Part shown: one piece after another, positions 1 to 38,855 of the stretch
Numbering within the stretch: the stretch's first letter is position 1
Layout of the letters: every line of letters starts with the position of its first letter
Origin: Mortierella sp. BCC40632
Lineage: Eukaryota > Mortierellomycota > Mortierellomycetes > Mortierellales > Mortierellaceae
Assembly: GCA_011634665.1 (NCBI GenBank)
Contig: WAEK01000001.1
Coordinates: 1 to 64,000 of the forward strand
DNA length: 64,000 nucleotides
Direction: 5' to 3'
Program-made: the position numbers and the translations under genes
The notes under the pieces: generated by a model
Databases searched by the model: none
The model's input: the letters and a program-made list of their open reading frames with translations, nothing else
Told to the model about the DNA's origin: nothing

Positions 1-1314
1 GAGGATGCGAGCAGTAGCCACGATTCAAGCCAAGAAGCAGAGGGTATTTGTCGTGCTGTTCGATGTAGCCGATTGTAAGCGAATGGCGCGCGCGGCCACG
101 GCGGGTTCTAGAGATGAGAGAGGGTCAGATGGGTCCAGGTCCACTGCCTCAATCGACCTAGGTAGAAGGGTGGTTGGCGTGGTACGGGTAGGTGTGACAG
201 GGTCGGAGTAACTGTCGTCAGATTCTTTGAAAAGTTTACATGCATGAGGAATGTTCGAAGGGGAAGTGTTTTGGTTTTGGAGCTTATTTTTTTAATTCAG
301 AAGAACTACAACTTAACTCTGGAACTAGTACACTCCCCTTGTCCAGAGAACAAGAGGAGGGGGCATCGGCAATCAGGTCCTGGACTAATCCTGATTGCCG
401 GAGACTTTTCCCGACTCTGGGGAGGAGTCCTCATTAACCGATATGTTGTTTAGTCTTGCGGGCCGGGATGGGGGTTTGTTGACGTGGCAATCTCGTTGAT
501 GGTGACCCAACTCACGGCATTTGAAGCAGCCGTTATTGTCTCGCAACCATTGGCGCTCAGAAGGTGAGAGGGGTTTGAGGCCTGTTTTATTCTGACGATT
601 ATTGCCGTTTTGCTTGAGCCTATTATTTTCCTTCCTGAGGGCATTAATCTCGAACCGAAGATTGTCCACTTCCATGGCCATGGGCGATTGGTGCTGGGGC
701 TGGAAGTTGGAAGCAACGACAGAAGGTTGGGTGTTCGTTGTATTCTTACTTTTGGTACCAGCGTGGTCTGGTTGGAAGTTGTAGATTCGGTCGAACTTCT
801 CAGCTGCAGCGAAGAGCTCGTAGACAGAGAGATCCTTGGAGATGAACAAGGCCTCCAGGAGTTGTTGGAGAGCTTTAGGGCAGCCATCGACAAATCTGAT
901 GTGGGCCGTATTCTCGATATCAGCTCTGACTTCGGCGGTTTTAGCTTCGGTCAGTAAGGCAGTAAGAAGTCTTTTTGACTCGGTAACATAGGTCTCGACA
1001 GTAGAAGTCATTCGTAGGTTGAACAACTTGGAGCGGATGGTGCGTGTGAAGTCGGCAGGGATGTACATCTCGGAGAAGTCTTTCTCAAAGTCTATGAAGG
1101 AGGCAGTGTCGCTCAATCCCTGATCCATCGAACCAACATGCCGCGTCCACATCCAAAAGTGAAACTGCGACAATTGTTTGGATGTTCTCGGGGACGGAGG
1201 TGGCGAGGAGGTAGCGTCAACGCTTTTTAACCATGCTTGTGCAGAAAATCCATCGCGACCTCCTTTGAATTTGTCTGGAAGGGGGTACTTTATGTGAAGG
1301 TGTGGTGGGAGCAA
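1..1314 (-). mobile_element. LTR-retrotransposon gag relic, CCHC zinc knuckle
   Basis: An open frame of 309 codons runs from 1314 to 385. It has the layout of a retrotransposon Gag: a helical capsid-like region, a Gln/Asn-rich linker, and near the C-terminus a CX2CX4HX4C knuckle (CFKCRELGHHQRDC) followed by a basic tail. Gag proteins of this type coat the element RNA inside cytoplasmic particles. A pol frame would be expected at lower coordinates. There I see only a short open stretch (about 208 to 25, minus) that cannot be assigned, and no protease or reverse-transcriptase motif, so the element is either cut by the window edge or decayed. I found no LTR pair. The family (Ty3-type most likely) is an inference from the knuckle alone. 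Confidence 0.7.
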
Positions 1315-1599
1315 CGGTAGACATGGTGATAGACAAACGGTCGAATGCGGCGGACAGGGGGTCGAGTAGGGACAGGGGGTCGTTTGGTAGGGGGGTGGGG
1401 GGTGGGAGAGAGCAGGGGACAGGGTTAGGGGCGGTGGACGGGGAAGACAGGGGGGGCGACGGGGAGGTCAACTTGAAAAGTAATGTTCAGGGTGTCAGGG
1501 GTGGAAAAAAATTCCTTTGCTATCATATAACAGGAACGATGGTTGAGAATGAACTGCCGTTTATTAGAGGGTGGTGAGAGGTATTTATATACTGCTGCA

Positions 1600-2115
1600 A
1601 GACTTCTCTGAACAACCCTCCCCTTCTCTGAGCAACCATAGACTTCTCTGAAAAACCAAAAACTTCTCTGAGCAACTATACACTTCTCTGAGCAACCCTC
1701 CCCCTTCTCTGAACAACCCTCCCCTTCTCTGAACAACCCTCCCCCCTTCTCTGAGCAACCATAGACTTCTCTGAACAACCACACACTTCTCTGAACAACC
1801 ACATACTTTCTCTGAGCAACCATAGACTTCTCTGAGCAACCATATACTTCTCTGAAAAACCACATACTTCTCTGAGCAACTATACACTTCTCTGAGCAAC
1901 CCTCCCCTTCTCTGAACAACCCTCCCCCCTTCTCTGAGCAACCATAGACTTCTCTGAACAACCCTCCCCTTCTCTGAGCAACCATAGACTTCTCTGAGCA
2001 ACCATATACTTCTCTGAGCAACCCTCCCCTTCTCTGAACAACCCCCCTTCTCTGAGCAACCATAGACTTCTCTGAGCAACCATAGACTTCTCTGAGCAAC
2101 CATAAACTTCTCTGG
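1600..2115. repeat. 20-bp minisatellite, about 25 units
   Basis: Tandem units of about 20 bp, of the type cttctctgagcaaccatag, alternate with a variant ending in ccctcccc. Some units are 21-24 bp because of extra C residues. As 20 is not a multiple of 3 and the unit has no stop on the minus strand, all three minus frames stay open and encode the same 20-residue motif in rotation (VAQRSLWLLREVYGCSEK type). The three overlapping frames of 67-273 codons here are a by-product of the repeat. It lies just upstream, on the minus strand, of the gag relic. Confidence 0.9.
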
Positions 2116-2994
2116 TACTTCACTGGCATAGTCTTTGAGACAAAGCAAAGTTTTGTGGTGGACGGTAGTTTAGAGTGACCCATGTTCACCTTGGGTTTGT
2201 TGAGAATCGGGGCCTCGCAAATCATGAACAGAAACGAGAGTGGCAAACGAGCAAGGTGTAGGAGCAGAGATCAAACTTTTTTTAGCGGACGCGTCTAATC
2301 TGACTCTAGCACTAAGTGAGAGCAGTTTTTCAACGGGCTTTCTCGTACCAACCCGGGAACCGCATGTGTTGGGCAAGAGTCAGGTGAAGCACCACAACCA
2401 TGCAGCTTAGCATCTAACAAATACTAAAGAAATATCTGAGTTTTCGCGTCACCTGATAGAAAATCCCCCTTTTCCTTTTCTGGTTTGCTCTGCTGTTACC
2501 TGTCCCCCTTCTTTGCTACCTGTTCTGCTGTCTGCTACAACATGCCCTTCTTTATTCGGCCGTAGGTGTCCTGCGTGTAATGTGCTACGTGCGTGCTACG
2601 AGAAGGCATACGATCGGAGTGCTATGAGAAGGCGCTATGAGAAGGCGCTATGAGAAGGCATAAGATCGGAGTGCTGTGAGAAGGTATAAGATCGGAGCAC
2701 CGGTCATTGGCCATTAACCGGAATAAGAAACTTTCTTCTATTCTTTTCCATCCTGAAGGGTACTTTTAGCAAACCTTGCAATTGCAATGTGAATAGTGGT
2801 GGTGGTGGTGGTGACTGAACATTTGTAATAGCGGCTGCAATCGTAATCATTTTCTCACTCCATGTGGGGTAGACCTTTTTAATCTTTATACATCCCAAAA
2901 AGGTATCGCAGACCCGAGAGGGGCTCCTTTCACCGAGTAGTCGGGTTCTCTCAGACATCTCTAATCGATTACTCAGAACCAACTTTAGGATCCC
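2116..2994. other. No gene seen; short tandem repeat at 2595-2700
   Basis: No convincing coding frame. At 2595-2700 a motif of about 13 bp (gctatgagaaggc) and a longer form with aagatcggagtgctgtgag are repeated several times. A (GGT)n run lies at about 2799-2813. Confidence 0.5.
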
Positions 2995-3552
2995 ATGCCC
3001 TCGCTTCGCACTGTTTCTCTATGCGTCGGCATGCTTTCTCGACCATGTACAGTAGTAGGACATGACAGGTACAGTGTCTTTCATGGAATTGATATCAATG
3101 ACCCTCAGGCAAGAAAGCAGGCAGTAGAGGCGTTTGCTCGGGCACTGGTGTGGTGGTACGACTCTAGCAGGGCGAACGATCAAGGCCGATTCAAAGCCAT
3201 TAGCGACTGCCACTCGGACCAGGACGACCAGCGACACTCACTAAGCCGAAACATGAAGAACCTGAGATGGAACTTCAAGAGTGCCATGAAGAAAAAAGAG
3301 GAGCTAGCAATCAAGGTACTGGGGTGAAGGCGATTCAAGAAAAGTACCTAATCCAATTGGTGAAACACAGACTCAAAAGGGCACATGTTGAGACACCTGG
3401 TCACCTCTTCCTATTGACCTTTTTGGCAGCAGTCTTTCTCCTCACTCCTTCCCATTGCAACAAGCAACTTGAGACATTGGTGGCCCCTAATGGGTCGATG
3501 CAAAGTTAATCAATAAACACTTGGTGTTTGAAAAAAAAAAAAAAAAAAAAAA
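2995..3552 (+). other. Unrecognised 110-codon frame ending in a polyA-tailed segment
   Basis: A frame of 110 codons (2995-3327) has no family I recognise. About 185 bp after its stop comes AATAAA at 3512-3517, then 22 A residues at 3531-3552. A polyadenylation signal followed at the right distance by an encoded A-tract looks like the 3' end of a reverse-transcribed mRNA or of a polyA retroelement. I found no flanking duplication and no intact protein, so this is probably a retroposed fragment. The name and function remain unknown. Confidence 0.35.
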
Positions 3553-4567
3553 GTAGGTTTCTGAAAAACGGTGTCCATCCCTATTCCCTCTCTCTCTCTC
3601 TCTCTCTTCATTTCATCCACTTTGGTCGGACAGACCCAAAAAAAAAAAAAAAAAAAAAAAAAAAAGGACTATTTCAGAAAAGAGGACTATTTAGAAAAAG
3701 TAGTATTTGAAAAAAGGACTATATCGAAAAAGTAGGATTTGAAAAAAGGACTATTTCGAAAAAGTAGGATTTGAAAAAAGGACTATTTAGAAAAAGTAGT
3801 ATTTGAAAAAAGGACTATTTAGAAAAAGGACTATTTCGAGGAAAAGTAGGATTTGAAAAAAAGGACTATTTCGAGGAAAAGTAGGATTTGAAAAAAGGAC
3901 CATTTAGAAAAGAGGTCAATTTGAGAAATATTCAATTCAGCAAGGGCAGGAGTTTGAATACAAGTGCTTGGTCCTGCGTGCCACAGCTATGCAAAATAGA
4001 GCTACTACGTAACGAACAGCTTAAGTCTGAGGAATGTGTGTTCAAAAGCTCTCTCTCTCTCTCTCCTCTTCTCTTTCTCTCTCTCCATACAGTTCATGAT
4101 TATGTCAGTTTGAAGACCGTGCACTGCGCATGGTCCCCCTGAAGCGTGAGGAAAAAAGAATGATTCATATTTTCCCAGCGCCATTCTGGCACCGACAAAT
4201 TAAAAGTGAGAAGATGCAAAGTGCAGCGCACTAGAGGATTCAACAATGAGAGAAGAGAGAGAAGAGAGCTCTGCTTGAACTTGACCTTTTTCTTTCCTTG
4301 CACACACACACTCCACACTCCACAATCCACAATCCACAATCCACAATCCACACTACACACACTACACACTATACACATACACTACTACACACATACACGC
4401 TCTCTCTTCCTCTTTTTATCATGGTAGGGCAAAGAATAAAGAAAGCACAAAAAAGGACCCCCAACAGTTCAACTTGACACCTTGCTAAATATTTACTACA
4501 TCGTTTTGCTCTTTAGGAGTCAACACTGAATTATTCTTTTGCAAAGAGAGATCACAGCGCAGGACTC
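3553..4567. repeat. Repeat cluster: A28 tract, 32-bp tandem array, CT and CCACA arrays
   Basis: A run of 28 A (3638-3665) leads into about seven imperfect copies of a unit of roughly 32 bp (ggactatttcgaaaaagtag followed by gatttgaaaaaa) at 3666-3910. A (CT)n stretch lies at about 4050-4086. Repeats built on tccacaa and ctacacaca lie at 4300-4400. No gene is visible between 3911 and 4567. Confidence 0.7.
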
Positions 4568-7500
4568 TTGAGAGTCTGGAGGAGCATGCTAGAGAGGCAT
4601 GACCCTGCTCTTGCACCCAGACTGGAGAGTACTCTGTCCCTTGACCACTGTCAATTGGAAAACAGGGCAAGTACGATGGAGACACTCTGCCGACAGGGCA
4701 TCGTCGTCGACATGGCTCCACTTGAAACATCTCGGGTACCAGCGACAACATCGATCGTGCAAAGTCTTCTCAATAACACTGCATCTCGAAACCCTCTATT
4801 CACTCTTACCATTGGAGACACATCAGTTGACATCCCACCCCACAGCAACCTGCATTTCCGACTATTGTCATCAGAGCTACACGTTGACATTTTTGTCTTC
4901 TCCACCCGAAAAAAGACAAAGGTCTTCAGGAGCGAAGACTCGACAATGTCAATCGGTATTCTTCAACACGTTGACTCCTACCTTGGGACGAGGGAGTGTT
5001 TGGCATTGGTGCCATCCAAGAACTACTCGGTCCAACAACATACCCCAGGAGAACCTCCAGCCCAGCCATACCATAGCCGCTACTCCCCGGCGGTCTACCG
5101 CACAGGCCCAAGAACCTATAGCGGTTTTAAAAACGGAAGTTAGACGATCCTGCGGACGCTGATATCCAGGAAGCCTTCAAAAAGCAAGGTAAATGTTTAA
5201 ACATGTACTTTTCAAGTACTCGATAGCAGAAATAGCCTCATAAAGCATGGTGTATCTAATGGCTTCTCCACTTGATACTGTGCAGGCATGACTACATAGC
5301 AAACCGCATTAAAGGAAGCATCTTAAAAGGGCAAAGACAAAGGGGAAGCCTACCAGTCTCTTATTGCAACAAAGAGACTTCCTCTATGCATCAAAAGTCC
5401 GCCTTCGATACCATAAGAGCCTCCAACGTGGCCGCCCGAGATCTTTCTAGGACTACTATGGACAAAAATTGGGGAAGGACGGCACCGTCAACCAATGGAA
5501 CAGCTACCTCGAAGCAAACTTTCAGTCACTATGGGAGGCAGAAGAAGAGGCCAAGACCAAAAGCTGTCTCTAAAGGGAAGGGTCGCGCCGACTCGAACGA
5601 TAAAGTCGATGCGGCAGCTAGAACAAGTGGAGGAGGAGGAAGAGGTAGTAGTAGTAGGAGAGGAAGCGGAAGAAACGGTGATGGCGATGATGGTGGCAGC
5701 GATGGTGATTACGAGATGGAGGAAGAGACTGGACCCGATCAGAGACAGCTCCGATCCTGCACAGCCACACACTTCAGCAAGTTCTTCGGCCTGATCTTTT
5801 GTACAGAGGACAAAGAGAGAATCCGAATTCTCCTAGAGAAAAGTCAAGAGGCTATGACGGTGGTTTGTGAGGAAATCTCGGTGCTGGCTACGAAGGCGGT
5901 TCATGAGGTAATGGCTCTGCATTTTTATTTTATTTTATTTTATTATTTTTTTTCTATTACTGACAAATGAATATCACCTCTTTTTTTCTTTTTTTTAGCT
6001 CGCATCAGGGACTCACTACATCAATCCATCTACCAAGATGGCCTTTGACATCCAGTCGGTCTTTCCGGCAGGATTCGAGTTTCGGGACAAGACTGTCCTG
6101 TCCTTGCTCCCAGTTGCGGCCCTTCCTGACCTTTTGCCAGAGCACCTGGAAGCCGAGAGAAAGAGCGACACGACAACTCTAATGTCGTATAGCTTTTTCT
6201 CCTGTTCATGTATTCTTGGTTCTTCGGAGCTCAAGGAGTTAACGCAGCGAACAAAGCCAGGCGACAGGTCTGGAGCAGTGTGGTCGGTAACCTCGTATCG
6301 GGCAAAAGCAAGTTTTCAGTAGATGTTGGAGGCCGTTCAAGTACTGTTAGTGAGCACTTGAAGCAAATGGCTACAAACATCGAGAACCTTTGGGGAGGCC
6401 AGATGTATGACAAGCTTCTCGATCACACTCTCTTGCTTCTATTGCGGCTCCATCTGGCTCCAGAGAGAGAGCGAAAGCAGAGAGAGAAAAACTCAAGTCG
6501 TCAGGCCACGAGAAAGAAAAGTCATCCCAAGAATGCAACTGTAGGCAAGAGTAGATGGAAACGGACAATCCTGGTGCTCTGCGATGATCTCAACCGTGCT
6601 CTTGACAAAGACCCAACCGGAGATGGGCAACGGATTCAATCGGTCCTGCACAGGATTGAATACATCCTGGCTCACAAGTACACAGCCCAAACCGCTGGGG
6701 CGGAATGTTTTTGAACCACTGGATGTCCGACTCGAACATCTGGATACGGACAATTTCGGAGGGGTCAATTTTGATGACTGGGATTTTAGCCAACTGGAGG
6801 GTGACCCTGTCAAAGAGCCGACAGTCGAGGCGGGCGGTGAATCCAGTATTCAAGCCCTAAGGAGAGCCGTCGAAGACCTGAATACGGACGACCTTGAAGG
6901 GATTGATTTTGACGATTGGGACATTAAAGAACCGGAGGAAGATTTTGTCAAAAGAGCCGGTGGTTGAGGTGAACAACAAGGACAATGGTGTGACCCAAAA
7001 GGAGAACTGTGTCAAAGATCAGGACTCTGACAATCTCGAAGGGTCTGATTTCGACGACTGGGATCTCGATGAGATGGAGGAAGAACTAGAAAACGAATTA
7101 GGGGATTCTCTCGCTAAAGAGCCAACAAGAGCGATCATATTGTCTTTGAGGAGACTTCTTCGTATGCTCCTAGAGTCACCCCGAATCGAGAAGGAAATCG
7201 ACAACAACTGGGTCAGAAAGTCAGCACACGGCGGAATGGATATCACCGAGGAGCAATGCAGTGTTGTAGCCAAGCTGGCTGGCCAACGCACTTCGACCCT
7301 ATGTTGCAAAACGTCGAGTTAGCCGAGAGACGAGACCCCAAGGTGGAACGGGGGCGCCCTTGGCCCACGCTACTTTGCTTGCACCTATGGCCATCATTGC
7401 CAACGCAATTCAAAGAGCGGCTGGGTATCCTCAGCACACTCGGCTTTTTTGTCACCAGAGATATCACCTTCTTCCAGTCATGCATTGATTCTTGGAGCGA

Positions 7501-9736
7501 AGGGGTTATACGAGGTGTTGTGTGCCAAGACGCCAGGCCACTTTGATATCAAGAACTCTGAAGGCACTCCTCTAATAGCCGGAGAAAGAGTCCCACATCA
7601 CAAGGACGCAGTCTTTGGGGCATTCTTCGACTTGGAGAAAGTTCAAAGGCTGTGTCGCAAGCATGGCCTCAGATTTGCGGACAGAATGATGTTCGTCGAT
7701 AGGTACACAGTCCGGATTTTGGGTGAAGTGATTCCACAGGGAGCCGAGCGTGGAGGTCGCCCGTTGTTCAGCCACTACGAGAGGCGGGTCAAGGCCAAGG
7801 TCAGGACTGATACTATGGACTGGACCAAAGAGATAGAGTATCAAAAGATGGAAGTGGAAACAATTGCTGAAGAGATCAAGAGAGTAGAGAGCAATATCAA
7901 AGACCTTGAGAGTAGAATCAAGCGAGGCCGAAAGGAACTCAAGGTGCTCGAGACGGATCAAAGCCTGACAGCCAAGAACCACCGCACAGCAGTCAGAAAA
8001 GAGAATGAGAAGGCAAACAAGGAAGGCATCGGGGGCGTAGACACGAATGAGGGCAATATTCAGAGTGTAGAGGACGGAAGAGGGAGTGAGCAAAAAAAGA
8101 CATATCGCGTTCTTCAAGAAGCAAGGAGAAAGGTGCGAGCTCTTCGAGCAACTGTACAGCCACAGGAGAGTCAGTTGCGACGCCTGCGGAAAGAGAAGAG
8201 TTACTGGAATGGGCTCCGCAGGGTAGTTACAGCAAAGACCCCAAAGAGCAAGGATGGCTCAAAGGCGGTGGAGTACACCACACCTACTGTGAAGGATTTT
8301 ACAGTCGAGGATTCAACGAGGCGGCTCGATATTTCCAAGTTGCCAGAGGACAGAATTGTCTTTGCAGGGACAGATCCAGGGATTCGAACGATGAGTGTAA
8401 CATGTGCACAGACCCTGGGTGAGATCAAGACGCATATCAACCGATATGCTGTACTTTTTATGGTAAGTTGAATGGGCAAGATGTAAGGAATAATGTCGGT
8501 CATCTGTCAAGCTCAGCGCATCTAATAGCTTTTTTTTTTAATGATGAATAGGCACAGAAGAGGATGCGGAGGGAAACCTTTGGGAGCTCTAATCCTGAGC
8601 CATGGCCACCACCTCCGGATGAGGAGTCATCAGGAGAGGCAACTGCCTCTAGAGAACAATGGACACCCCAGAGTCGTCCATTCAAGATCACGGCACCTCA
8701 GCTCAATGAAGCTTCAGGGATGCGACGGGTAGCCAAGAGGCGAGAGATGCGACTTAAGAGACCGGAGAATAGTGATGTACGCGAAGCACTGGAGAAGCTC
8801 TCAGACAAGGAACAAGTTTTGAAGACAGCACAGACGATGGAGGAGATTGACAGGGCGCATGAGCTGCATCGAGAGTCACGCAAAAGCATTGAAGGGATTT
8901 GAGAAATCCAAGGCAAGGTTGAAGGATCTGCACAACCAGCGACTTTCGCACAAGAAGGGTGTGGGGGAAGGTGGCGGCAGCAGAGAGGGAGTATGTGAAG
9001 AATCACGCATTGGAAACGTTTGGGTCAGAGAGCCCATCAGGTACAGTTGAGCAGAACAAAATCCTTTTTTTTTTTTTTTTTTTTTTATTTTTACTGAGTC
9101 TTCTTCTTTTAATGTTCTAGAGGTATCCCCGTCAGATGGATGGTGTGGTGGTTGCCAACGGCACCATATAGCGTGTACCTGGGGTAACTACCAGCACCTG
9201 GCTCGGTGTCGCAAGAATGGTCCATCACTCATCCCAGTGATGCTGGTGGGGTCGGGAGGAACGGGAGTAGGAAGCAGAATTGGAGGGCACGCTAGACGGG
9301 GAGGAGGAAAGATGAGAGAGCAGCATATGCGGTACGGAGTGGTTGGACTTACTGATGAATTCAGGACGAGCCAGACGTGTGCCGAGTGTTTTGGTCAATT
9401 GAGGAAGGCACGGTCGCGTCGGATTGTGGATGGCAAGGAGAAGATGGTTCAGGTGAATGGAGCAATGGAGTGTACGAACAGCCAGTGCGGGTCAGTCCAG
9501 CGAGGACGCATACGATCAAGTCCCGGGATGTGAACGCAGCCGTTTGTATTGCGATAGCAGGAGGGTCGACTCTACTCTCACTGGAGAGACATACACTGGA
9601 GCCATTTACAAGGACAATCCGTCCCACCAAACATACCTGTTCATATTCACAGGAGATAGCTCAACTTACTATGCCTCCAACATCAGTTAGAGATGCAATG
9701 GGGGATCCCTGCGGTACGCAGGGCAAACTAGGCTAG
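4568..9736 (+). pseudogene. Fanzor (eukaryotic TnpB-like RNA-guided nuclease), decayed
   Basis: The C-terminal half carries the published Fanzor/TnpB signature in order: RuvC-I FAGTDPGIR (catalytic D codon 8373-8375); about 275 residues later DEFRTS followed by a C4 zinc finger (Cys codons 9378, 9387, 9471, 9486); then RuvC-III SRDVNAAVCIAIAG (D codon 9527). A coiled, charged region precedes RuvC-I (about 7820-8200). Upstream is a segment with WFFGAQGVNAANKARRQVW (about 6214-6270) and three acidic repeats. Likely introns are 5909-5998, 8463-8551 and 9041-9120. The reading frame is broken near 6200, 6710, 6960, 7300, 7480, 8890, 8950 and 9500, so this copy cannot encode a full protein as read. 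Fanzors are RNA-guided endonucleases of eukaryotic transposons. The 5' end is uncertain: coding-like sequence starts near 5272, and 4568-5190 is only tentatively part of the gene. Confidence 0.8.
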
Positions 9737-9786
9737 TAAAAGGAACACCAGTATCCAGTATCTAAGTTGTATCCATCTACGTTTAG

Positions 9787-12212
9787 GTCACGGAAGACGA
9801 TGTCGTAAAGCACTTTTGGAAGGAGAAAGGGAACAATCCGAAGGTCATTAATTTGGACAAGAAGTTCAAGAAGTATCTCAAGGACTTAGGAAAGTCAGCC
9901 AATACAGTTCTTTGCGAGGGCCAGAAAGAAGCAAAGTATCCAAAAAGCAGAGAGCTGAGCCCTATAACTGACGAGAGTGATTACACGGATGTGGATAGGG
10001 ATTCAGACGACTACATTGATCATTACAACAACTTGGCCAGCTCCGATGACAACTTCGACTATGAGAGTTTGGAAGAAATCATTGTAGACACGAAAAGCTT
10101 TGCTACTGGCAGTAGGGAGCTTAACGAGAGCGAAAAGGAGCCAAGTGTCGAAGAGCTGGAAAAGACTAGAGGCCCAGACGAGGGTATCCGAACAATTGGC
10201 AAGAAAAAGTCCGACGGCGATAGATCGAACAGCCCTGATTGTCCTGAGAGTTGTACCCTCATCTTCAAGCAGCAGCGAGAGTGACAATAGTTCCACAAAG
10301 AACGAAAGTGATGAGGACGACGCTGTTTTCTCTCTGCCCCAATGAGTCGGATACATCAGAAGATCTAGAAGGCCTCAGAGGCGAGGCCTCATCTGCAAGT
10401 GGTCATGACAACAGGGACAACACGGAGTGTCAGAGCTATGGTGCGTGCGCTATTGAATCTAGCAGTTGTTGCACTTGGAGACTAGCCTACGAGTTGTGCT
10501 AAATTTGTACGCTTTCCTTTTCTAGGGAGAGCACGTGGATGCTGTTGGATGGAGCCCCGCAGTCGATGATCAATTCTCGGATTTCGAGGAGGCCAAGTCC
10601 ATGATGCTCGACTATGCCTGCCGCAATGGTTTCCGAACGAGGGCCAACTCTTCTTCGAAAAATGCTACTTATCCGACTGGTAAGTGAGTTGTTGTCAACT
10701 TTGTGTTATGTCGATATCAAAGAGGGCGTTGGCACAACGGGAGACTTAGGAGCCTTTTTTTTTTTTTTTTTTTTTTTTTTTCACCAAGGGTTAATCGTTT
10801 GCACTCGCCAGGGCACACACACCTCAAAAAAAAGGTTTTGGATCCATCCAAGCAGCGGCCAGGAAGTATTTCAGTCCGCTGTGGCTGCAAATACGCTGTA
10901 TACCTTAACAGCCCAAAGTCTATCAAGCCACGATGGCGTATTTCCAGCATCTCTGTTTTGCACAACCACGCCCTTGGAAAACCTCGTCCAGAATTTGAGC
11001 CTCTTACAGAGTATGACCTCAATTTAATCAGACAGGCTGCAGAAATGGGTTGGGGAACTGGTAAAACGATAGAGATGCTTCAGATAACCCGAAGCGCCTC
11101 TTTTACGAAATCCAAGTACTTGTTCGACCAGAAAAAAAAATAGCCAACTATATCTCGAAACAACGTGCATCGTCTAACACCATTTCTGATGCTGCCCAGT
11201 TGTTCAACTTGCTTGGAGAAATCCCAGGCCAATGGCTCTCCAGGAACAGGATTGTGGCCGGTCGTCTCCAGGCTGTCTTTTGGATGTGCCCGGCGCAACA
11301 GGATTTATACAGGAGGTATCATGACGTTGTCGTCCACGACACAACTGCATCCACCAATCGATTCGGTATGCCGCTCCATTGCTTCGTTGTAGTTGACAAC
11401 AATTTTCGGACAAGACTGGTAGCCTGTGCCCTTACCTCTGGCGAAGAGACCTCAGATTACGAATGGGTCCTTTCGCAACTGCTAGAGCTGAATGAAAATA
11501 AGCCCCCAAGACCCTCATGCTGGATAAAGATCCAGCAATGAACATTGTCAGTACAACCTTTCTCCCTGATACAACTATAGTCAATTGCCGGTGGCACGCA
11601 AACAAGAACATTAGGCTACGCCCTTTTCAAAGCCCTTGGGAAAGATTGGGATGAATTCTCACTCCGCTTTCAAGATGTCACCCGCTCTTTGATTTCCAGA
11701 GAATTCGAGGCCAAGTGGCAGAAGCTGTGCGAGAAATATCAACAAAACCCCATCGTCCTCAACTATCTTGATCGTTTGTATTCGAACCGTTTTCGATGGG
11801 CTTGGCCATGGGTGCGCACTCAGTTCACAGCTGGGATGCAATCCACTCAACGAGTAGAGAAGTCGCACCATCTTCTTAAAATGCTGAATCTCAATGGTGG
11901 TTCCTCTTTAACAAGGGTCCTTAAAGCTACAGGGGTGAAGATAGAGAAGGAACTTTTGAGGCAAAATTCAATAGCTGTCCTGAAGGTGAGGCAGCCAGAA
12001 GAGAGGCAAGTTCCAGGACTTTAGAGCCGACCATGTCAGAAAAGGCGTTCAAGCAAGTACTACAATCCAATGAGGATCTTTTTGGGTTCGTTTGCTAAGG
12101 CCAAAATGAGGCGGGAGATGGACTCATCATTTGGGTTTTCTGCGCGTCTCAAGAGTCTACAGGAGCTCTTGGAGCTCTACCCCCAGACAGTGACTCGGCA
12201 AGTATCCTATCC

Positions 12213-12248
<36 letters not shown>

Positions 12249-13032
12249 GAAGAGGATATTAATATTGCCTCGTCTCGTGTAATAGGATGAATCGGGGCGT
12301 ATATCAACTCTCGTTTCTCTGATCTCTAGGATCGGTCAAGACGATACGCGTTTCGTTTTCAGGGCAAAGGACACGTTGGGCTGCGAACAGAAGGAATACG
12401 TCATACTTCTGACCGATCACTCGTACTTCTGCACTTGTCTACTCCTCCAAAATTTGGGAGTCGTTTGCCGCCATTTTTTCTGCGTCATGAGGAAAGAGCC
12501 AGAGTGCCGATATCACATCAGTTTAGTGCACCGCCGCTGGTATAAGGAATCCATCCAAGACATCCCCGATCTTAGTGAGAGGATTGGACGCAAGTCTTTC
12601 CAGGCCGCTTCTCGGCACCACAAGTCAACCAGAATGGGGTATCCCTCGGATTCTTTCATGACCAGTGTTTCTGACCTGTTCTCCTCCGAAAAAAAATCTG
12701 TCGCTTATCACAAGGAGACCCAATCTAGGAAGAGACGGCACGCAGAAATAACAGGACTCGGAAAGAAGATCGCAGGTCTTTCGAGCAACGATCCACTTAT
12801 GCATGGGAAGATTTTGAGCAAGATGGAGGAAATTCAGGGATCTCTGGAAAAGGATATGGAAAGTGAAGCAGCTGTGCAAAACGATGGTGAGACTCCTACC
12901 GTCGGCGATCCAAGAAGAGTGAAGACCAAAGGACGACCGAGGAGTGCTAGGATTTTGAGTAGTGGCGAAAAGAGTAAAAAAAAAAGGGAAGCACAATTGA
13001 CGATGTGTCAAATCGGCATCATAGACCGATGA
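9787..13032 (+). pseudogene. Mutator-like (MULE) transposase, FAR1-DDE-SWIM, decayed
   Basis: Acidic N-terminal sequence begins just after an intron-type acceptor at 9786. A FAR1/WRKY-GCM-type DNA-binding region follows (10525-11010, with a GCKY and HNHAL pair). Then comes a MULE DDE domain: first Asp in VVVHDTTAS (codon 11338), second Asp in LDKDPA (codon 11523), Glu in QRVEKSH (codon 11857). A SWIM zinc finger follows (CTC ... CRH, about 12430-12473), and a basic Lys/Arg-rich tail ends at 13032. MULE transposases cut and paste elements with long TIRs and make duplications of 8-11 bp. Frame changes near 10280, 10340, 10830, 11150, 11515 and 12020 show decay. The T-rich stretches at 10756-10782 and 12216-12246 look intronic. 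It follows the Fanzor relic on the same strand with only about 50 bp between the two coding parts. Confidence 0.85.
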
Positions 13033-13068
13033 CATAACAGTCGTATTGAGTGGCTGAAAAGCTGGGAC

Positions 13069-13290
13069 CTCTGCCCTAGTTGTAGTCCCCCTGCCTTTGA
13101 CTTGCCCCTCTGCGGGTGCTCATTGTACCCTGGTCTTTTTCCTCTTCTCTGGATCGCCTTCCACCTATTCTCTTTTTTTTTTTTCCTTTTCCTTGGTGGA
13201 TTGAGGACTAGATAGCCACGTCTGGAAAACATGGGACGGTGCGCACAAATGAATAAAACCCCTAACGGGGCCTGTAAAAAAAGGAAGAAA
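13069..13290 (+). mobile_element. PolyA retroposon, family A, with 13-bp TSD
   Basis: The insertion is flanked by perfect copies of gaaaagctgggac (13056-13068 and 13291-13303). Its 3' end reads AATAAAACCCCTAACGGGG, then CCTG and an A-rich tail. The same 3' end occurs at 13990-14041 and, reversed, at 20311-20365. The CCCC/GGGG arms can form a small stem-loop before the tail, as in many LINE/SINE 3' ends. No coding capacity. Confidence 0.8.
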
Positions 13291-13370
13291 GAAAAGCTGG
13301 GACTGTAGATAAATGTGAGAGCAGAACGTTGAGATATGTGTGAGAGTAAGCTGGAGGCCTTTTTCAGGAG

Positions 13371-13482
13371 ATATGTGTGAGAATAAGCGTCTCACACATA
13401 TGTGAGATTAAGAAAAAAAATGAGTTTGAGAGCTATTCTCACATATGACTGAGAATAAGCCGCTCACATATATGTGAGAATA
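13371..13482. repeat. Two nested-sequence hairpins
   Basis: Arms 13371-13382 and 13390-13401 are perfect complements over 12 bp (atatgtgtgaga). Arms 13434-13446 and 13470-13482 are perfect over 13 bp (tattctcacatat). Both are built from variants of the same ctcacatatgtgag palindrome. They abut the left copy of the 550-bp inverted repeat. Confidence 0.8.
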
Positions 13483-13490
13483 TCTTCATC

Positions 13491-14041
13491 CCCGCTGGAA
13501 TTAGTGTCTAAACACACTAGACCTTGAGGCCGTAAAATCCATCTCCAATTTTGGCCCCACTGGTTTTTTTTGTCTCACTCGATAGAAACGCCTGCTCTGT
13601 GTCAGCCTGCTTGAATTTTGGGACTTGGGGCCCCAGGTTAGGCCGTGTAGAGCCGAAAGCCTTTACACCCACTAATCCCATGTAAAATTTTTCTTACAAA
13701 ATCTTCATGCCTATTCCAGTGTAAAATCTCCGCACCAACCTAATGACTGATTTTTCCGTGGTACTGCAGTTCACTGATGCCAGTTCAGTACACTACAGCT
13801 CGACACGTCCAATCCAAGCATGAATCTATCCTCCATACCGTTCGATGATTACTATCCGCCGTACCCAGAAACTTTATCTTTTTGGATGCTTATCCGCTAT
13901 ACCATGCTCTCACTTGTCCTTTGTTTTAGGATAGTGTAGTTTTGAGAACTAGTTGGCCACATCCACAAATCGTGGGACGAGTGCGCGCCGACGAATAAAA
14001 CCCCTAACGGGGCCTGTAAAAAAAGAAAGAAAAGAAAAAAA
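13491..14041 (+). repeat. Left copy of a 550-bp inverted repeat, ending in retroposon tail
   Basis: This stretch is almost identical to the reverse complement of 20311-20870, from cccgctggaattagtg at its outer end to the A-rich tail at its inner end. It encodes nothing. The last 124 bp (13918-14041) are themselves a family-A retroposon with a perfect 14-bp duplication, atgctctcacttgt, at 13904-13917 and 14042-14055. The distant copy also contains this insertion but lacks the second duplication, so the 550-bp unit was copied after the small insertion occurred. Confidence 0.85.
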
Positions 14042-14145
14042 ATGCTCTCACTTGTTCGATGTGCCTGGGTTCGTTGATTGCTTTTGTTGTCCTTGAGTTT
14101 GGCTTGCTGGAGTGCTGTGTGTGCACGGAGCTTCAGGTTGTTGAT

Positions 14146-14200
14146 TTTTTTTTTTTTTTTTAACAATCTGTTTCCGCTGGAATAGCCGTGCAGGCAAAAC
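14146..14200 (-). mobile_element. Ultra-short polyA retroposon stub, family B, 17-bp TSD
   Basis: The perfect duplication agcttcaggttgttgat lies at 14129-14145 and 14201-14217. The insert is a T-run followed by aacaatctgtttccgctgg and about 20 more bases. On the minus strand this is a body of about 38 nt ending ttccagcggaaacagattg, then tta and a polyA tail. Only the last few bases of a longer element were inserted. Confidence 0.85.
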
Positions 14201-14217
14201 AGCTTCAGGTTGTTGAT

Positions 14218-15854
14218 GGATCTACCACACTTTTCTTTTCTTTTCTTTTCTTTTCTTTTTTTCGAATGGGGTGAATATTCAATCGAAAGGTCGGCGCAAA
14301 TTTGATAGCAATCACTTTTACTCCAAAGGTGCCCCTTCTACCTTCCTTGCCCAATGAATCACCACTCTTCTGGATATCTAAAGAGGAGAAATAGGTATGG
14401 CATCGAGATGGATTCCTCTTCTCACTTCCTAGTATTGCGGATTATTGACCGAGCTTCCTGGCTCACCCCAGTCAACCTTTGTGTGCTGAGGCAACACAAT
14501 CGACGAAAGTGCCTTACATTGGACTAGGAAATGTTGCTACACTTGAGTCTGTAATTGGCTCTCCAACACTCCTTGCATTCTTTGTGTCGGAGTAACCTCT
14601 CTCAAAGGAATGCATCCCACACTTCCTCTCTCCACACAACTATATCTGAACTTCTGCAATAGAGCTTCGATGGAAATTTAGCGGAGAACTACCGCTGTTC
14701 ACCTGAAAAGCATCCGAAAGTTAGAGAAATGGAGTCCAACCATTAACGGGAGAAGGGCAAGGGGAGTATCCAGCAACTAGAAGAAAGTGGGTATCTGACA
14801 AAAAAGCGACCAGGGAAATTGGGCTACGCTCTGACGAATATCATCTGTCGGATGAAAACTGACAATTAGCTTCTCCTCTCTCAACAGAAGAGCGCGTTAA
14901 CTCTAGCTAACAACCTACAAGGACAAAGCTTTAGCTTCATTTCTTGAGAATTGGTGGTAGACTGCTATTCTTTCAACCGGGCAGCTCAAAAAAAACAGTA
15001 TCTGTGGGTCACTCCTGTATCAGACTTAGGACAGGCTGCTCTTGTCTTCAAATCAATATTCTTCTGAATTGGAACGAAGGGGAAGGTTGAAAATACCATA
15101 TCGTTCCCACAAATATATACATGGGATACTGGCCAATCTCTGGTAGACAATTATCATGGAGCGACCAGGGTAATCACCTGTCAAGTTACAATTTGACCCT
15201 TTGGGATTACTCTTCTCTTCTTCTTTTCCTTCTTCCCTCTCAGAGCGAGGCCAAATGCGTGATATGAAAGTGTAGGATAACAACGCCACAGCGAGTGAGT
15301 GGGTTCGTTTCAAGAAGCATAATCAACTAGTCAAAGTGGAGGTGTCAAGTCCCAGTCAGTGTAACAAGAACGTACAAAGATGCAATCAATTGTCGGGATC
15401 GAGTAAAGGCAAGGACTTTTTTGTTTTATTTATTTGATCTTTAACCTTCCATGCGGCAAAGACGTCTTTGCAATCAATGCTGGCGGTGTTTAGGTTCTAT
15501 AACCATCAAGGCTTTAGATTAGCACAAAAAAAAAAAAAAAAACAGCTAGCAATGCGAATCAGGCTTTGAGGGACGAAGGAACAACAGGTGTGCCTTTCTC
15601 TCCCTCGAAGTTTGCTTCACCACTAACCTCAACCATTTGAGTCTACTGGAGGGGGGGAGGGGTCCTGTTCATAAAGACGAGGCAAAAGAGTCTAGAGTCT
15701 ATGACGGATAGCCAGTGCATAAAGATCTGGCATAATACAGGTGGAAGGGGGCTCATCATGGCAGAACAAGATGCATGCGACCAAACTTCCCAAGCACAGC
15801 GATCATTGCACAGCATGAGATTGCTTGGTCCTCAGCTGACCCACCATCGGGGAA
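14218..15854. other. Intergenic, no gene seen
   Basis: I find no frame with recognisable domains or splice-supported extension. A (CTTTT)n run lies at about 14230-14260 and a 19-A tract at about 15523-15542. The left part is AT-rich and looks like decayed repeat sequence. Confidence 0.5.
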
Positions 15855-15991
15855 TATAAAAACGCTCCGCCCTCGTCTTCGCCTTTTTTTTTTTTTTTTT
15901 TTTCCTTTTTTTCTCACACTCCTCCCACCTCTCTCACCTTCAACTCCTCATTACATATCCACAAACACGTACCCCTCCACACATCATCATC
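15855..15991 (+). promoter_or_regulatory. Core promoter and leader of the IFI27-like gene
   Basis: A TATA box (tataaaaa, 15855-15862) is followed by a run of about 21 T (15883-15903) and a C/T-rich leader without ATG up to the start codon at 15992. The arrangement TATA, pyrimidine tract, CA-rich leader is typical of a strong pol II core promoter. Confidence 0.65.
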
Positions 15992-16774
15992 ATGCCAAGC
16001 AGTGACGACAGGACTTTTAGCGTAGATAAAGAGCCAGATTCGAGTCAGATACAAGGAAACAATGAGAGACAAGGGCTCGGACAAGGATTACTCGATGGGG
16101 CAAAAAGTGTCGTCTCGCACAAAACAGTTGTCGTTGTTATCGTAGGCGCTGGAGCGGCGGTGGTGGTCCCAATAGCAGTTGGTGGCCTATTGAATATTGC
16201 AGGATTTACTCCGGGGGGTGTTGTTGCGGGGTCGTTTGCGGCGAAAGGAATGACCACCTACAAAGGCTATATTGCCGCTGGTTCACTCATGGCCATATCA
16301 CAGTCAGCTGGGGCAGCTGGCCTGTCGGCTGCAAGCGTGGGGCTATTGTCCACCATTGGTGCAGTCGCTGGAGGATTAACTGCGTGGAAATTTATGGGAG
16401 AGGCTACAGATCCCTCGAGCAACCCGTCCACAATCCCATACGAGGGCAATATTGCGGTCATGGTGCGGTCGGTTGGCGCAGCGGGCTGGTCGGCAGCAGG
16501 CTCAGGACTGACTCATGCACAAGGCGGACTTGCCAAGGCATATGAATGGGGACAAGCGTTGGGGAGTGAAATGAATGATGGAGCTTCCTACAAAGACACC
16601 ATTGCGGCCAAGGCGCGATCAGTTCGCGCCGCTGGCTGGTCAGCTGCAGGCTTAGGACTGACTCATGCTCGTGATGGACTTGCCAAGGCCCATGAATGGG
16701 GGCAAATACGAAGGAATAATGAAGTCAAAGAGGAAGTTACAACTTCATCCAACCCATTTCAACCCAAGCTTTAA
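15992..16774 (+). CDS. IFI6/IFI27 (ISG12)-like small hydrophobic protein
   Basis: An intronless frame of 260 codons. Residues about 45-135 form a Gly/Ala-rich hydrophobic segment with the family hallmarks GFTPGGVVAGSFAAK, then AAGSLMAISQSAGAAGLS and a second hydrophobic stretch, as in interferon-inducible 6-16/ISG12 proteins. In animals these sit in mitochondrial or nuclear-envelope membranes and influence apoptosis; the fungal role is not known. The C-terminal third is unusual: a 107-bp stretch is duplicated 150 bp apart (16451-16557 and 16601-16707), giving two modules with RAAGWSAAG and GLAKAxEWGQ that resemble a truncated version of the domain core. It has its own TATA promoter and sits alone between the two 550-bp inverted repeats. 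The family call is by motif recognition. Confidence 0.75.
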   Translation: MPSSDDRTFSVDKEPDSSQIQGNNERQGLGQGLLDGAKSVVSHKTVVVVIVGAGAAVVVPIAVGGLLNIAGFTPGGVVAGSFAAKGMTTYKGYIAAGSLMAISQSAGAAGLSAASVGLLSTIGAVAGGLTAWKFMGEATDPSSNPSTIPYEGNIAVMVRSVGAAGWSAAGSGLTHAQGGLAKAYEWGQALGSEMNDGASYKDTIAAKARSVRAAGWSAAGLGLTHARDGLAKAHEWGQIRRNNEVKEEVTTSSNPFQPKL

Positions 16775-20310: not shown

Positions 20311-20870
20311 TTTTTTTTTTTTTTATTTTCTTTCTTTTTTTACAGGCCCCGTTAGGGGTTTTATTCGTCGGCGCGCACTCGTCCCACGATTTGTGGATGT
20401 GGCCAACTAGTTCTCAAAACTACACTATCCTAAAACAAAGGACAAGTGAGAGCATGGTATAGCGGATAAGCATCCAAAAAGATAAAGTTTCTGGGTACGG
20501 CGGATAGTAATCATCGAACGGTATGGAGGATAGATTCATGCTTGGATTGGACGTGTCGAGCTGTAGTGTACTGAACTGGCATCAGTGAACTGCAGTACCA
20601 CGGAAAAAATCAGTCATTAGGTTGGTGCGGAGATTTTTACACTGGAATAGGCATGAAGATTTTGTAAGAAAAATTTTACATGGGATTAGTGGGTGTAAAG
20701 GCTTTCGGCTCTACACGGCTCAACCTGGGGCCCCAAGTCCCAAAATTCAAGCAGGCTGACACAGAGCAGGCGTTTCTATCGAGTGAGACAAAAAAAACCA
20801 GTGGGGCCAAAATTGGAGATGGATTTTACGGCCTCAAGGTCTAGTGTGTTTAGACACTAATTCCAGCGGG
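20311..20870 (-). repeat. Right copy of the 550-bp inverted repeat
   Basis: Reverse complement of 13491-14041 with few differences. On the minus strand it begins cccgctggaattagtg (20870) and ends with the family-A tail (AACGGGGCCTGT plus A-rich) at 20311. No ORF. The two copies bracket 6.3 kb. Confidence 0.85.
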
Positions 20871-20915: not shown

Positions 20916-20987
20916 GGGCCGAACCGGGAATTGAACCCGGGACCTCTCGCACCCTAAGCGAGAATTATACCACTAAACCATCCGGCC
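20916..20987 (-). tRNA. tRNA-Pro (AGG)
   Basis: 72 nt without intron. The acceptor stem GGCCGGA pairs with TTCGGCC. The D arm carries TGGTTTAGTGGTAT (A box), the anticodon loop TTAGGGT gives anticodon AGG, and the T arm is CCGGG TTCAATT CCCGG (B box). A TTTT run follows within about 20 nt. The sequence is identical to the copy at 38784-38855. Confidence 0.97.
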
Positions 20988-31316: not shown

Positions 31317-33394
31317 CTAAAGTCTCCGCTGTTTATTACGATCACCTTCTCTTTCTCCACTGCCTAGCCTTCTTTTTGGTGGCAACGGTGGCGCTGACTT
31401 TGTCTGAACCTTCGGTCCTGGGTTCTGACTATTAGTTTGCTTACTTGAACCGATTGTCGCCTTTCCTACAGAGCTCTCGATAACAAGTCTTTTCAACTGT
31501 GGAGGAAGAGGTGTTACCCGTTCTATGCCAAGACCATTAAGCATGTTTGCAAACTCGGATAGAAGAGATCGGTGATCTTCGTTAATGAATGTAATAGCCC
31601 ACGCCATACCACCGAGCTTCGGACCCTTTCGAAGACCGACCGAAGCTTTTGTTGCAATGTCTGGATTCGCTCGACCGACACGATGAATATATTCCTGAAT
31701 GGTTGGAGCCATATCAAAGTTAATGACAGTTGCTACCTGGAGATTCAGTCCTCGAGCCAAGAGACCTGTAGCCACAACTACAGATGTAGTCCCATCCGAC
31801 AGCGAATTGATGACAGAGGTTCTCTCGTCTTGACACTTCTCGCCGTGGATCGAGGTGGTAATTATTCCTGGGCATTTCAGTTGGATAGCCTTTGCCAGAA
31901 GATCGGCACCTACACGCGACTCTACAAAAATCAACACAGGAGGCCGAAAATAGTTCTTGTCACGAAGAAGAGAAAAGAGTTGATTCTTCTTGGACTTGTT
32001 CTCTACCCAGAGGATTGTCTGCTTGATCTTGGAGGAAGGTGAAAAGACATCGTCGTGTGTGTGTGCTGTCTTAGATGGCAACGGCGACGACTCTACATCT
32101 GTAACGCTCGAAGGATCAAAGACTGTGATTTGCAGCGGATCTGTTAGGTATTGCATCGTCATCTTTTGGACTTGGCGTGGAATGGTAGCCGAGCACATGA
32201 TGGTTTGTCGTCCATTGAGTGGTTCCGGAAGGATATCTAGTAGCCGTTTCACTTGCTTCCCGAATCCCATACTGAACATCATATCGACCTCATCAAGAAC
32301 CAGACAAAACACATTTGAGAATGATATTTCTGGGTGCTTCGCCATAATGTCTACCAGACGTCCTGGGGTGGCGACTGCAATTTGAATGTTTTGTCTTAGC
32401 CGATAAACCTGGTTCACCATTGCTTGTCCACCCACCAAAAGTGCGGTTAACATGTTGGGCATTCCTCGGACCATTTGTTTGATGTTGCTCTCGATCTGCA
32501 TTGCCAACTCTCTTGTGGGCGTAAAAATGATCGCAAAAGGTCCTTGGACAGGATCTGTAGACGGGATGCTCCTGCAGTAGACTTGAGAGAGTCCATAGAC
32601 ATGGTTCAGTACTGGGATAAGAAAGCTAGCCGTTTTTCCTGCTCCTGTCGCAGCTGATATCAGCATATCACGACCCAAGAGTCCTGCCGGAATGGCTTGC
32701 GTCTGTGCAGAGGTTGGTTGATTATATCCATTTTCCAGCAGGTTAAGATGAAGTCTCGGGGGGAGCTTGCATTCGTCGAAGGATTCGATTGGTGGCGGAA
32801 TATGCTTTCCTTGAACCTGGATGTGTTGCTGAGATCGAAGGTCTGCGGCTTCCTTTGCAGTCATTGCCAACATTCTTGGCGACTTGGTATATCCTGTAAT
32901 GCTACATATCATCCTTGAGCTTTGATATTGCGGCTTTGAGAGAGATCGAGGGTGGTGCTCTGCAAGAGAGGTAGGTGGAAGACCATTCTCTGCCCCCGTC
33001 TCCGTACTACATCCATTAGAAAGATAGTTTTATGCGAGGTTAAGAAAGAGATTGCCACCATTCTTCTTTAGATTCTGAGCCTCATGCCTTACCATTGGGT
33101 GAAGTGCAGTTGGCCCGCATTCGAGAAGTGCGCGTCTTTTGGCTGACTTAGAGGAACAGTTGGATTGTCATTATTCCATGTCTCGGAGACTGCCCATGCC
33201 GATGAAGTTGGAATGCCTAGGTCTTTTTGTTGTTGGGTTTCGACTGGCTGGACTGGGCCAGGTCCACAAGAAGGAAGAAGGAGTGCAGGCGCTGGAAGGT
33301 TCTGAGTAGAGGACGCTTTCCTGACTTCAGCAAGAGTCGGCAGGTTAGTCCGGATGGCGCCCTTCTGGCGACTAACGCTCCTTGGAACAAACAT
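31317..33394 (-). CDS. DEAD-box RNA helicase, DDX59-like
   Basis: Two exons: 33394-33093 and 33006-31317; 663 codons. After a low-complexity N-terminus come the Q motif (GYNQPTSAQTQAIP), motif I AATGAGKT, Ia PTRELAMQ, Ib TPGRL, motif II DEVD in place of DEAD, motif III SAT, IV VLIFVESR, V ATGLLARGLNL and VI YIHRVGRANP. The spacing and the N-terminal sequence around MICSITGYTKS resemble DDX59. I do not see the Cys/His zinc finger that vertebrate DDX59 carries. Two motifs are odd: V has Asn where Asp is usual, and VI lacks the second Arg and is followed by about 20 extra residues before GMAWAITFINED. A missed intron there was tested, but no in-phase GT-AG pair was found. Confidence 0.85.
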
Positions 33395-38783: not shown

Positions 38784-38855
38784 GGCCGGATGGTTTAGTG
38801 GTATAATTCTCGCTTAGGGTGCGAGAGGTCCCGGGTTCAATTCCCGGTTCGGCCC
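38784..38855 (+). tRNA. tRNA-Pro (AGG)
   Basis: 72 nt, no intron, identical to the minus-strand copy at 20916-20987. Acceptor, D, anticodon (loop TTAGGGT) and T arms all pair. A pol III terminator of seven T lies at about 38864-38870. Confidence 0.97.

What the first reader, a model, noticed from the sequence alone, without database searches (positions are those of the whole stretch)
4568..13032. Fanzor relic in tandem with a MULE transposase
The sequence shows the full C-terminal Fanzor signature (D, about 275 residues, TS-x2-C4 finger, RD) and about 300 bp later a MULE transposase with DDE and SWIM parts on the same strand. Fanzor proteins are known passengers of eukaryotic transposons. A MULE-linked copy in an early fungus suggests a composite element that carried its own RNA-guided nuclease. 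Both copies are dead here, but intact relatives may exist elsewhere in the genome.
Basis: partly seen in the sequence, partly recalled or inferred. Interest (0 to 1): 0.82.

Follow-up and report, generated by a model that had tools for sequence, protein, structure and literature searches.

The report
RNA-guided nuclease Helitron nested in MULE
In a fungal genome, a jumping gene that carries an RNA-guided DNA cutter (Fanzor) sits inside a second, unrelated jumping gene (a MULE), in the place where sister copies keep a protease gene, and the double element occurs at several places.

Summary
In detail: a frame-broken Fanzor with the full C-terminal signature lies upstream of a MULE transposase on the same strand. 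The interpretation needs correcting. The Fanzor is the passenger of a separate 7.3-kb element with Helitron ends (window 2413-9736): 5' TC, 3' hairpin plus CTAG, inserted between A and T. All 34 distinct right flanks read begin with T. The Fanzor stop codon is the Helitron's last three bases (TAG in 39 of 41 ends read).

This Helitron sits inside a MULE whose 3' TIR ends at 13491. One copy (C12:702444-718240) shows the whole thing between two MULE TIRs. Eight close loci share the Fanzor/MULE junction. Ten other loci of the same MULE subfamily have an Ulp1-type protease block at that junction instead. So the Helitron took the place of a MULE gene, and the composite multiplied.

Fanzors in Helitrons and in MuDR-like fungal elements are already reported; the nested, gene-replacing composite is the new part. 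No empty site was found (4 searches), guide-RNA function is untested, and how dead the copies are is uncertain, because indels are about as common as substitutions.

The parts
1600..2412 (+). Truncated left arm of the MULE (includes a 20-bp tandem array 1602-2114); shared with Ulp1-type MULE C4 and with composites C12, C19, C44
2413..9736 (+). Fanzor-carrying non-autonomous Helitron, 7,324 bp, inserted between A (2412) and T (9737)
   Evidence: A|TC at the left and CTAG|T at the right; copies elsewhere begin and end at the same points with other flanks
5417..9736 (+). Fanzor1-like gene in several frames with poly-T-rich introns; the 5' limit is approximate, set by similarity (by eye) to the N-terminus of P0001
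4517..5143 (+). 208-codon open frame upstream of the Fanzor frames, inside the Helitron; identity unknown
   Evidence: not searched on its own
9707..9723 (+). Helitron 3' subterminal hairpin CCCTGCG-GTA-CGCAGGG
   Evidence: 7/7 paired in 34 of 41 ends, at least 6/7 in 40 of 41
9734..9736 (+). TAG: at once the Fanzor stop codon and the end of the Helitron (CTAG)
9737..13491 (+). MULE right arm: acidic N-terminal frame 9787-10284, FAR1-like 10688-11143, MULE/DDE 11065-11541, C-terminal SWIM-like 12286-13032 (frame-broken), then TIR
13180..13491 (-). MULE 3' terminal inverted repeat, about 310 bp; the 5' partner is missing from the window but present in C12 and C4 (96-97% identical)

Best explanation
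A non-autonomous Helitron that carries a Fanzor1-like gene (window 2413-9736) is nested inside a MULE DNA transposon, at the place where sister MULE copies carry an Ulp1-type protease gene, and the composite has multiplied. Shown: element ends, the multi-copy state of each element alone and together, the Ulp1/Helitron alternation at one junction, one complete composite between MULE TIRs, and different flanks at different copies. Inferred: the Helitron is moved in trans by a RepHel protein from another Helitron; Ulp1 was lost by exchange between two Helitron insertions on either side of it (both borders of the Ulp1 block in C4 read A|T) or by an equivalent deletion; MULE transposase then spread the composite into A/T runs. 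Also inferred: when intact, the Fanzor worked like known Fanzors and TnpB, with an RNA ending at the Helitron 3' hairpin (overlapping the end of the reading frame) and the flanking DNA as guide, cutting sites that lack the element.
For: Homology of MULE-free Fanzor loci stops at 9737-9742, while composites run on. 48 matches to the 31-bp 3' end at up to 3 mismatches, 29 exact, against 0 for the reversed control. 34 of 34 distinct right flanks start with T; the 5 distinct left sites among 16 left ends all end in A. Helitron1 features are 5' TC, 3' hairpin (PMC3627910 section 9); the CTRR end and A|T target are recalled. C12 composite 15,797 bp with two TIRs and T runs on both sides; C4 Fanzor-free element 9,382 bp with A runs on both sides. 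8 close composite loci versus 10 Ulp1-type loci. dN/dS between the C8 lineage and the main family is 0.24, 0.23, 0.23 and 0.44 in four segments (codons in poorly aligned stretches dropped: 392 of 419, 255 of 390, 189 of 189, 164 of 164 kept).
Against: Four empty-site searches found nothing. No RepHel gene lies in the element, and none of the 23 RepHel matches lies within 20 kb of a listed 3' end, so no autonomous partner was identified. The 9-bp MULE duplication cannot be delimited in homopolymers. The 5' TIR of a composite was seen in C12 only; in C19 it was not found in the stretch fetched, and in C44 the 3' end is 12 bp short. The Ulp1-side left border was read in C4 only. Pfam's TNB score is below its cut-off. 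The nested copies in C9 begin TT, not TC.
Confidence: 0.85

Rival explanations
1. One reading: the Fanzor is a true gene of the MULE, carried between its TIRs as its own RNA-guided nuclease.
For: One TIR pair encloses both in C12; eight close loci keep them together; MuDR-like Fanzor elements are reported from Rhizopus, Phycomyces and Mucor (PMC3627910, passages).
Against: The Fanzor block has its own precise ends and occurs at many other sites; ten loci of the same MULE subfamily lack it.
Confidence: 0.08
2. Fanzor homing: cutting of Ulp1-type MULEs guided by the MULE sequence beside the Helitron's 3' end, with repair from a composite, converted Ulp1 copies into Fanzor copies.
For: The composite's right flank (putative guide) recurs in Ulp1-type copies with one mismatch before the short CCAGTATC difference. 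Two sites near the junction split the types perfectly, while distal sites are mixed (6 composites, 3 Ulp1 copies).
Against: Only ten informative sites; plain exchange between near-identical repeats gives the same pattern; no guide RNA or adjacent motif shown; the target side would need a motif in AAGA where the composite has AGCA.
Confidence: 0.1
3. The eight composite loci are segmental (for example subtelomeric) duplications rather than transpositions.
For: Several lie on short contigs or near contig ends (C1 start, C35, C44 twice).
Against: Sequence changes exactly at the 3' TIR end in C12 and C19 with different flanks; both flanks of the other loci were not fetched.
Confidence: 0.15

Closest known systems
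CRe-1, 2, 3 Fanzor1 Helitrons of Chlamydomonas (PMC3627910, sections 8 and 9 read)
   Same: Fanzor1 in a non-autonomous Helitron; many copies keep the 3' end but lack the 5' end; truncated copies start at T-rich places
   Different: Those are Helitron2 type and insert after TTTT; this one has Helitron1-like ends and an A|T target, is fungal, and is nested in a MULE
MuDR-like Fanzor1 elements ROr-4, PBl-3, MCi-4 of Mucoromycota (PMC3627910, passages)
   Same: Fanzor1 between MuDR-type TIRs in early-diverging fungi
   Different: The paper says those encode no MuDR transposase; here the transposase is present and the Fanzor has Helitron ends of its own
MULEs that carry an Ulp1-type protease (plant Kaonashi type; recalled, no paper read)
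   Same: MULE transposase with a Peptidase_C48 gene beside it in the C4 copy
   Different: Fungal, and the protease block is replaced by a Fanzor Helitron in eight close loci
SpuFz1 of Spizellomyces punctatus (PDB 8gkh; PMC10432273, passages)
   Same: Zinc-finger/RuvC-III region aligns weakly in a profile search (E 0.33); the alternative glutamate and RD motifs are shared with Fanzors as described
   Different: Sequence otherwise too divergent to match; function of this one untested

Membership tests
Fanzor1 | D-X(125-275)-[TS][TS]xx-C4 finger-X(5-50)-RD motif (PMC3627910, abstract) | tested here: met
   Window: D in GTDPGIR, TS before the C4 finger, RD, across several frames; E, finger and RD conserved in most of the relatives aligned
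Fanzor1 | DPG in RuvC-I and glutamate six residues before the finger (PMC10711439, passages) | tested here: met
   GTDPGIR and TDEFRTSQTC in this family; relatives and the divergent family in this genome read DYG instead
Fanzor1 | Match to the Pfam zinc-ribbon/TNB model over its cut-off | tested here: not met
   17.5 bits against 26.3 in the C7 copy; E 2.4 in the window. A model hit is an aid, not a defining trait
Fanzor1 | Similarity to a solved Fanzor | tested here: inconclusive
   Profile to SpuFz1 E 0.33, ranked after a chance hit at E 0.26; structure model too poor to search (pLDDT 55.5)
Fanzor1 | RNA-guided cleavage with guide from the 3' flank | not testable with these tools
   needs RNA sequencing and biochemistry
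Helitron | 5' TC and 3' CTRR ends with a subterminal hairpin (CTRR recalled; hairpin and TC in PMC3627910 section 9) | tested here: met
   TC at 2413, CTAG at 9733-9736, hairpin 9707-9723; some copies begin TT
Helitron | Insertion between A and T without target duplication (recalled) | tested here: inconclusive
   A at the 5 distinct left sites, T at 34 of 34 distinct right flanks; no empty site found
Helitron | RepHel protein (autonomous members only) | tested here: not met
   No PF14214 match on C1; so at most a non-autonomous member
MULE | MULE-type DDE transposase | tested here: met
   PF10551 E 1.9e-9 in the window, E 1.2e-16 over the full model in C4
MULE | Long terminal inverted repeats | tested here: met
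   About 310 bp, 96-97% identical, both ends in C12 and C4; only the 3' one in the window
MULE | About 9-bp target duplication | tested here: inconclusive
   A or T runs on both sides in C4 and C12; a homopolymer cannot be delimited

The most novel reading that the evidence does not exclude
The Helitron's Fanzor homes: with the MULE sequence next to its 3' end as guide it cuts sister MULEs that still carry Ulp1, and repair from a composite swaps in the Helitron. An RNA-guided nuclease would thus convert a host transposon family from within, replacing its protease gene.
Probability: 0.1. Interest if true: 0.85.

Novelty: new variant of a known kind. Interest (0 to 1): 0.48.

Why it matters
The same MULE exists in one genome with a protease and with an RNA-guided nuclease element at one junction, so what a Fanzor does for its transposon (retention, homing, nothing) could be asked on natural near-identical pairs. 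It also predicts where this Fanzor's guide RNA should end, because the stop codon is the last codon of the element.

Tried and rejected
Rejected: the Fanzor as a plain MULE gene (it has its own ends). Rejected: multi-Fanzor tandem elements. In C9 the flanking Fanzor pieces are the two halves of a divergent Fanzor gene whose intron holds the Helitron; protein P0003 joins the two halves. The same right flank is read in C2, C6, C9 and C12, the same left flank in C1, C2, C6, C9, C12 and C18.

Led nowhere: NCBIfam, single-sequence PDB search, structure model (pLDDT 55.5; no fold search made on it), four empty-site searches, search for an autonomous partner, tRNA scan beside two truncated copies (none), paper searches on fungal Ulp1 MULEs, Mortierella Helitrons and nested elements (listings only).

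Not resolved: whether frameshifts are decay or assembly error. Between copies indels are about as many as substitutions and lean to homopolymers, while a host helicase at 31320-33029 is one unbroken 570-aa frame. The fall of dS toward the 3' end (0.95, 0.35, 0.15, 0.10) could be constraint or exchange.

Full report
Host. The window is the start of contig C1 of a 49.9-Mb genome in 62 contigs. The two proteins found for the Fanzor come from Lunasporangiospora selenospora (best: 60% identity over 68% of the 844-aa frame of the C25 copy). The 16 found for a second, divergent Fanzor include Lunasporangiospora (85%), Mortierella, Benniella and Actinomortierella, and some without a named source. I infer a Mortierellomycota fungus; the species was not identified.

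The observation. The Fanzor signature and the MULE domain are there. Own-genome searches gave 138 matches to the Fanzor exon, 150 to the zinc-finger exon, and 60 and 76 to two MULE pieces. These are matches, not loci.

Two elements, not one. I compared window 1-16000 with stretches around C12:712k, C19:524k, C44:35k and C4:2893k. The first three match across Fanzor and MULE at about 98% with gaps counted. C4 matches 9737-13491 (98.6%) and the left arm up to about 2413, but nothing of the Fanzor block. Of the Fanzor loci returned by the searches that reach that point, those without MULE stop matching the window at 9737-9742, and the composites continue. The stop point has the shape of a Helitron 3' end: hairpin CCCTGCG-GTA-CGCAGGG, then CAAACTAGGCTAG, then T. 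The left end is A|TCTAAC in the MULE and A|TTTAAC in copies inside another Fanzor gene. The 31-bp end pattern has 48 matches at up to 3 mismatches (29 exact), the reversed control 0; the 5' end pattern has 16. Besides the window I read 40 fetched 3' ends: 34 distinct right flanks, all beginning with T, second base C or T in 30 of 34. Counting the window, the stem is 7/7 in 34 of 41 and at least 6/7 in 40 of 41, and the terminal codon is TAG in 39 of 41. Of the 40 ends, 17 are in loci that came from protein hits without any condition on the flank. The others were picked from the lists, and the pattern includes the T but allows mismatches. L018 (C3) was left out by my motif filter; it too reads CTAG|T.

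The Fanzor stop. The last Fanzor frame runs through the hairpin and stops on the TAG of CTAG. Protein end and element end thus coincide, which recalls Fanzors whose guide RNA overlaps the C-terminal coding part (PMC10432273, passages). The last 150 nt fold somewhat better than shuffles (z -2.25; 6 of 200 shuffles as good). Guide-RNA function is inference.

The MULE. The window's 3' TIR is 13180-13491. The 5' TIR is absent: homology of the left arm stops at about 1600, and the contig begins at 1. In C12 the composite is 15,797 bp (702444-718240) with 11 T before and 12 T after. In C4 the Fanzor-free element is 9,382 bp (2891109-2900490) with about 15 A before and 9 A after. In C19 no 5' TIR was found in the stretch fetched; in C44 the 3' end is 12 bp short. 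Between the arms C4 has an Ulp1-type protease (Peptidase_C48, E 4.9e-5, above its cut-off). I grouped the matches into 22 loci of this MULE subfamily, leaving out two more distant MULE families. Eight have the Fanzor block joined to the MULE (C1, C3, C12, C35, two on C19, two on C44). Ten have the Ulp1 block at the junction: L052, and nine stretches in which about the last 530-590 bp of the block were read. Four more (C54, C55, C56, C61) are full of stops, with Fanzor matches upstream, and were not fetched. No locus read had both blocks.

How the swap may have happened. In C4 the Ulp1 block starts after GCA|TT and ends before AGA|TAAAAGG; the composite reads GCA|TC...CTAG|TAAAAGG. Both borders are A|T, so two Helitron insertions followed by exchange between them would delete Ulp1 exactly. 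A contiguous empty site was not found. The first 2.3 kb of the right arms of 6 composites and 3 Ulp1 copies differ by 0.09-0.86% substitutions. Of ten informative sites, two near the junction separate the types, while distal ones do not (C35 goes with the Ulp1 copies C4 and C11 at several; the Ulp1 copy on C2 goes with composites). So the two types appear to exchange sequence, by ordinary recombination or by nuclease-driven conversion.

Other nests. The same Helitron sits in an intron of a divergent Fanzor gene (left flanks at C1, C2, C6, C9, C12, C18). Another copy lies in a MULE C-terminal coding region; its right flank matches the window MULE just after GACA (L093). In C19 the composite's 3' end abuts the inverted A run of another Fanzor Helitron. 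Six 3'-only copies begin at the poly-T tract corresponding to window 9066-9087. In five of them the upstream sequence matches neither the others nor the Helitron; in the sixth (L045) inverted pieces of the same Helitron lie upstream. This resembles the 5' truncation described for Chlamydomonas Fanzor Helitrons (PMC3627910 section 8).

Alive or dead. The window Fanzor is split over frames. The C25 copy has 844 open codons but its later exons are in other frames. The C4 MULE has 548 open codons with a full MULE domain. The C8 lineage and the main family show dN/dS of 0.24, 0.23, 0.23 and 0.44 over four segments, so the protein was under selection at some time. Copies differ by about as many indels as substitutions, mostly in homopolymers, and I cannot exclude unpolished repeat sequence.

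Literature. Fanzor1 in Helitrons (Chlamydomonas), and in MuDR-like elements without transposase (Rhizopus, Phycomyces, Mucor), is in PMC3627910 (abstract, sections 8 and 9, and passages). Searches for Fanzor with MULE and fungi, with MuDR, and with Helitron listed 2, 1 and 4 papers. Nothing I read describes a Fanzor Helitron nested in a MULE; the library lacks most subscription papers.

Noticed in passing
window 388-1467 (-): Retrotransposon gag-like frame (PF03732 E 3.8e-4, below cut-off) just left of the truncated MULE arm.
   Followed up: no
L052:4356-4952 (-): Ulp1-type protease (Peptidase_C48) in the Fanzor-free MULE; the 3' part of the same block is next to the MULE in nine more loci.
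   Followed up: partly
L058:1-9991 (C9:776900-786890): The Fanzor Helitron inserted in an intron of another, divergent Fanzor gene; the same left flank is read at six loci.
   Followed up: partly
window 13207-13282, 13942-14038, 20327-20417: A short dispersed repeat shared with the MULE TIR; the C12 composite lies next to a T run joined to a copy of it, and the C4 MULE, by eye, next to another.
   Followed up: partly
L039, L041, L042, L043, L045, L048: 3'-only Helitron copies that all begin at the intron poly-T tract.
   Followed up: partly
C54, C55, C56, C61: Composite-like loci on short contigs with very many stops in both genes; decay or poor sequence.
   Followed up: no
L007, L008 and L048, L099 (C14, C25): A second MULE family with a long open frame (687 and 548 aa) about 5 kb from Fanzor-Helitron 3' ends that share one right flank.
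   Followed up: no
L014/L046 versus L012/L010: Synonymous divergence between two Fanzor lineages falls steadily toward the 3' end (dS 0.95 to 0.10).
   Followed up: no
window 20916-20987 (-) and 38784-38855 (+): Two tRNA genes with identical Rfam scores.
   Followed up: no
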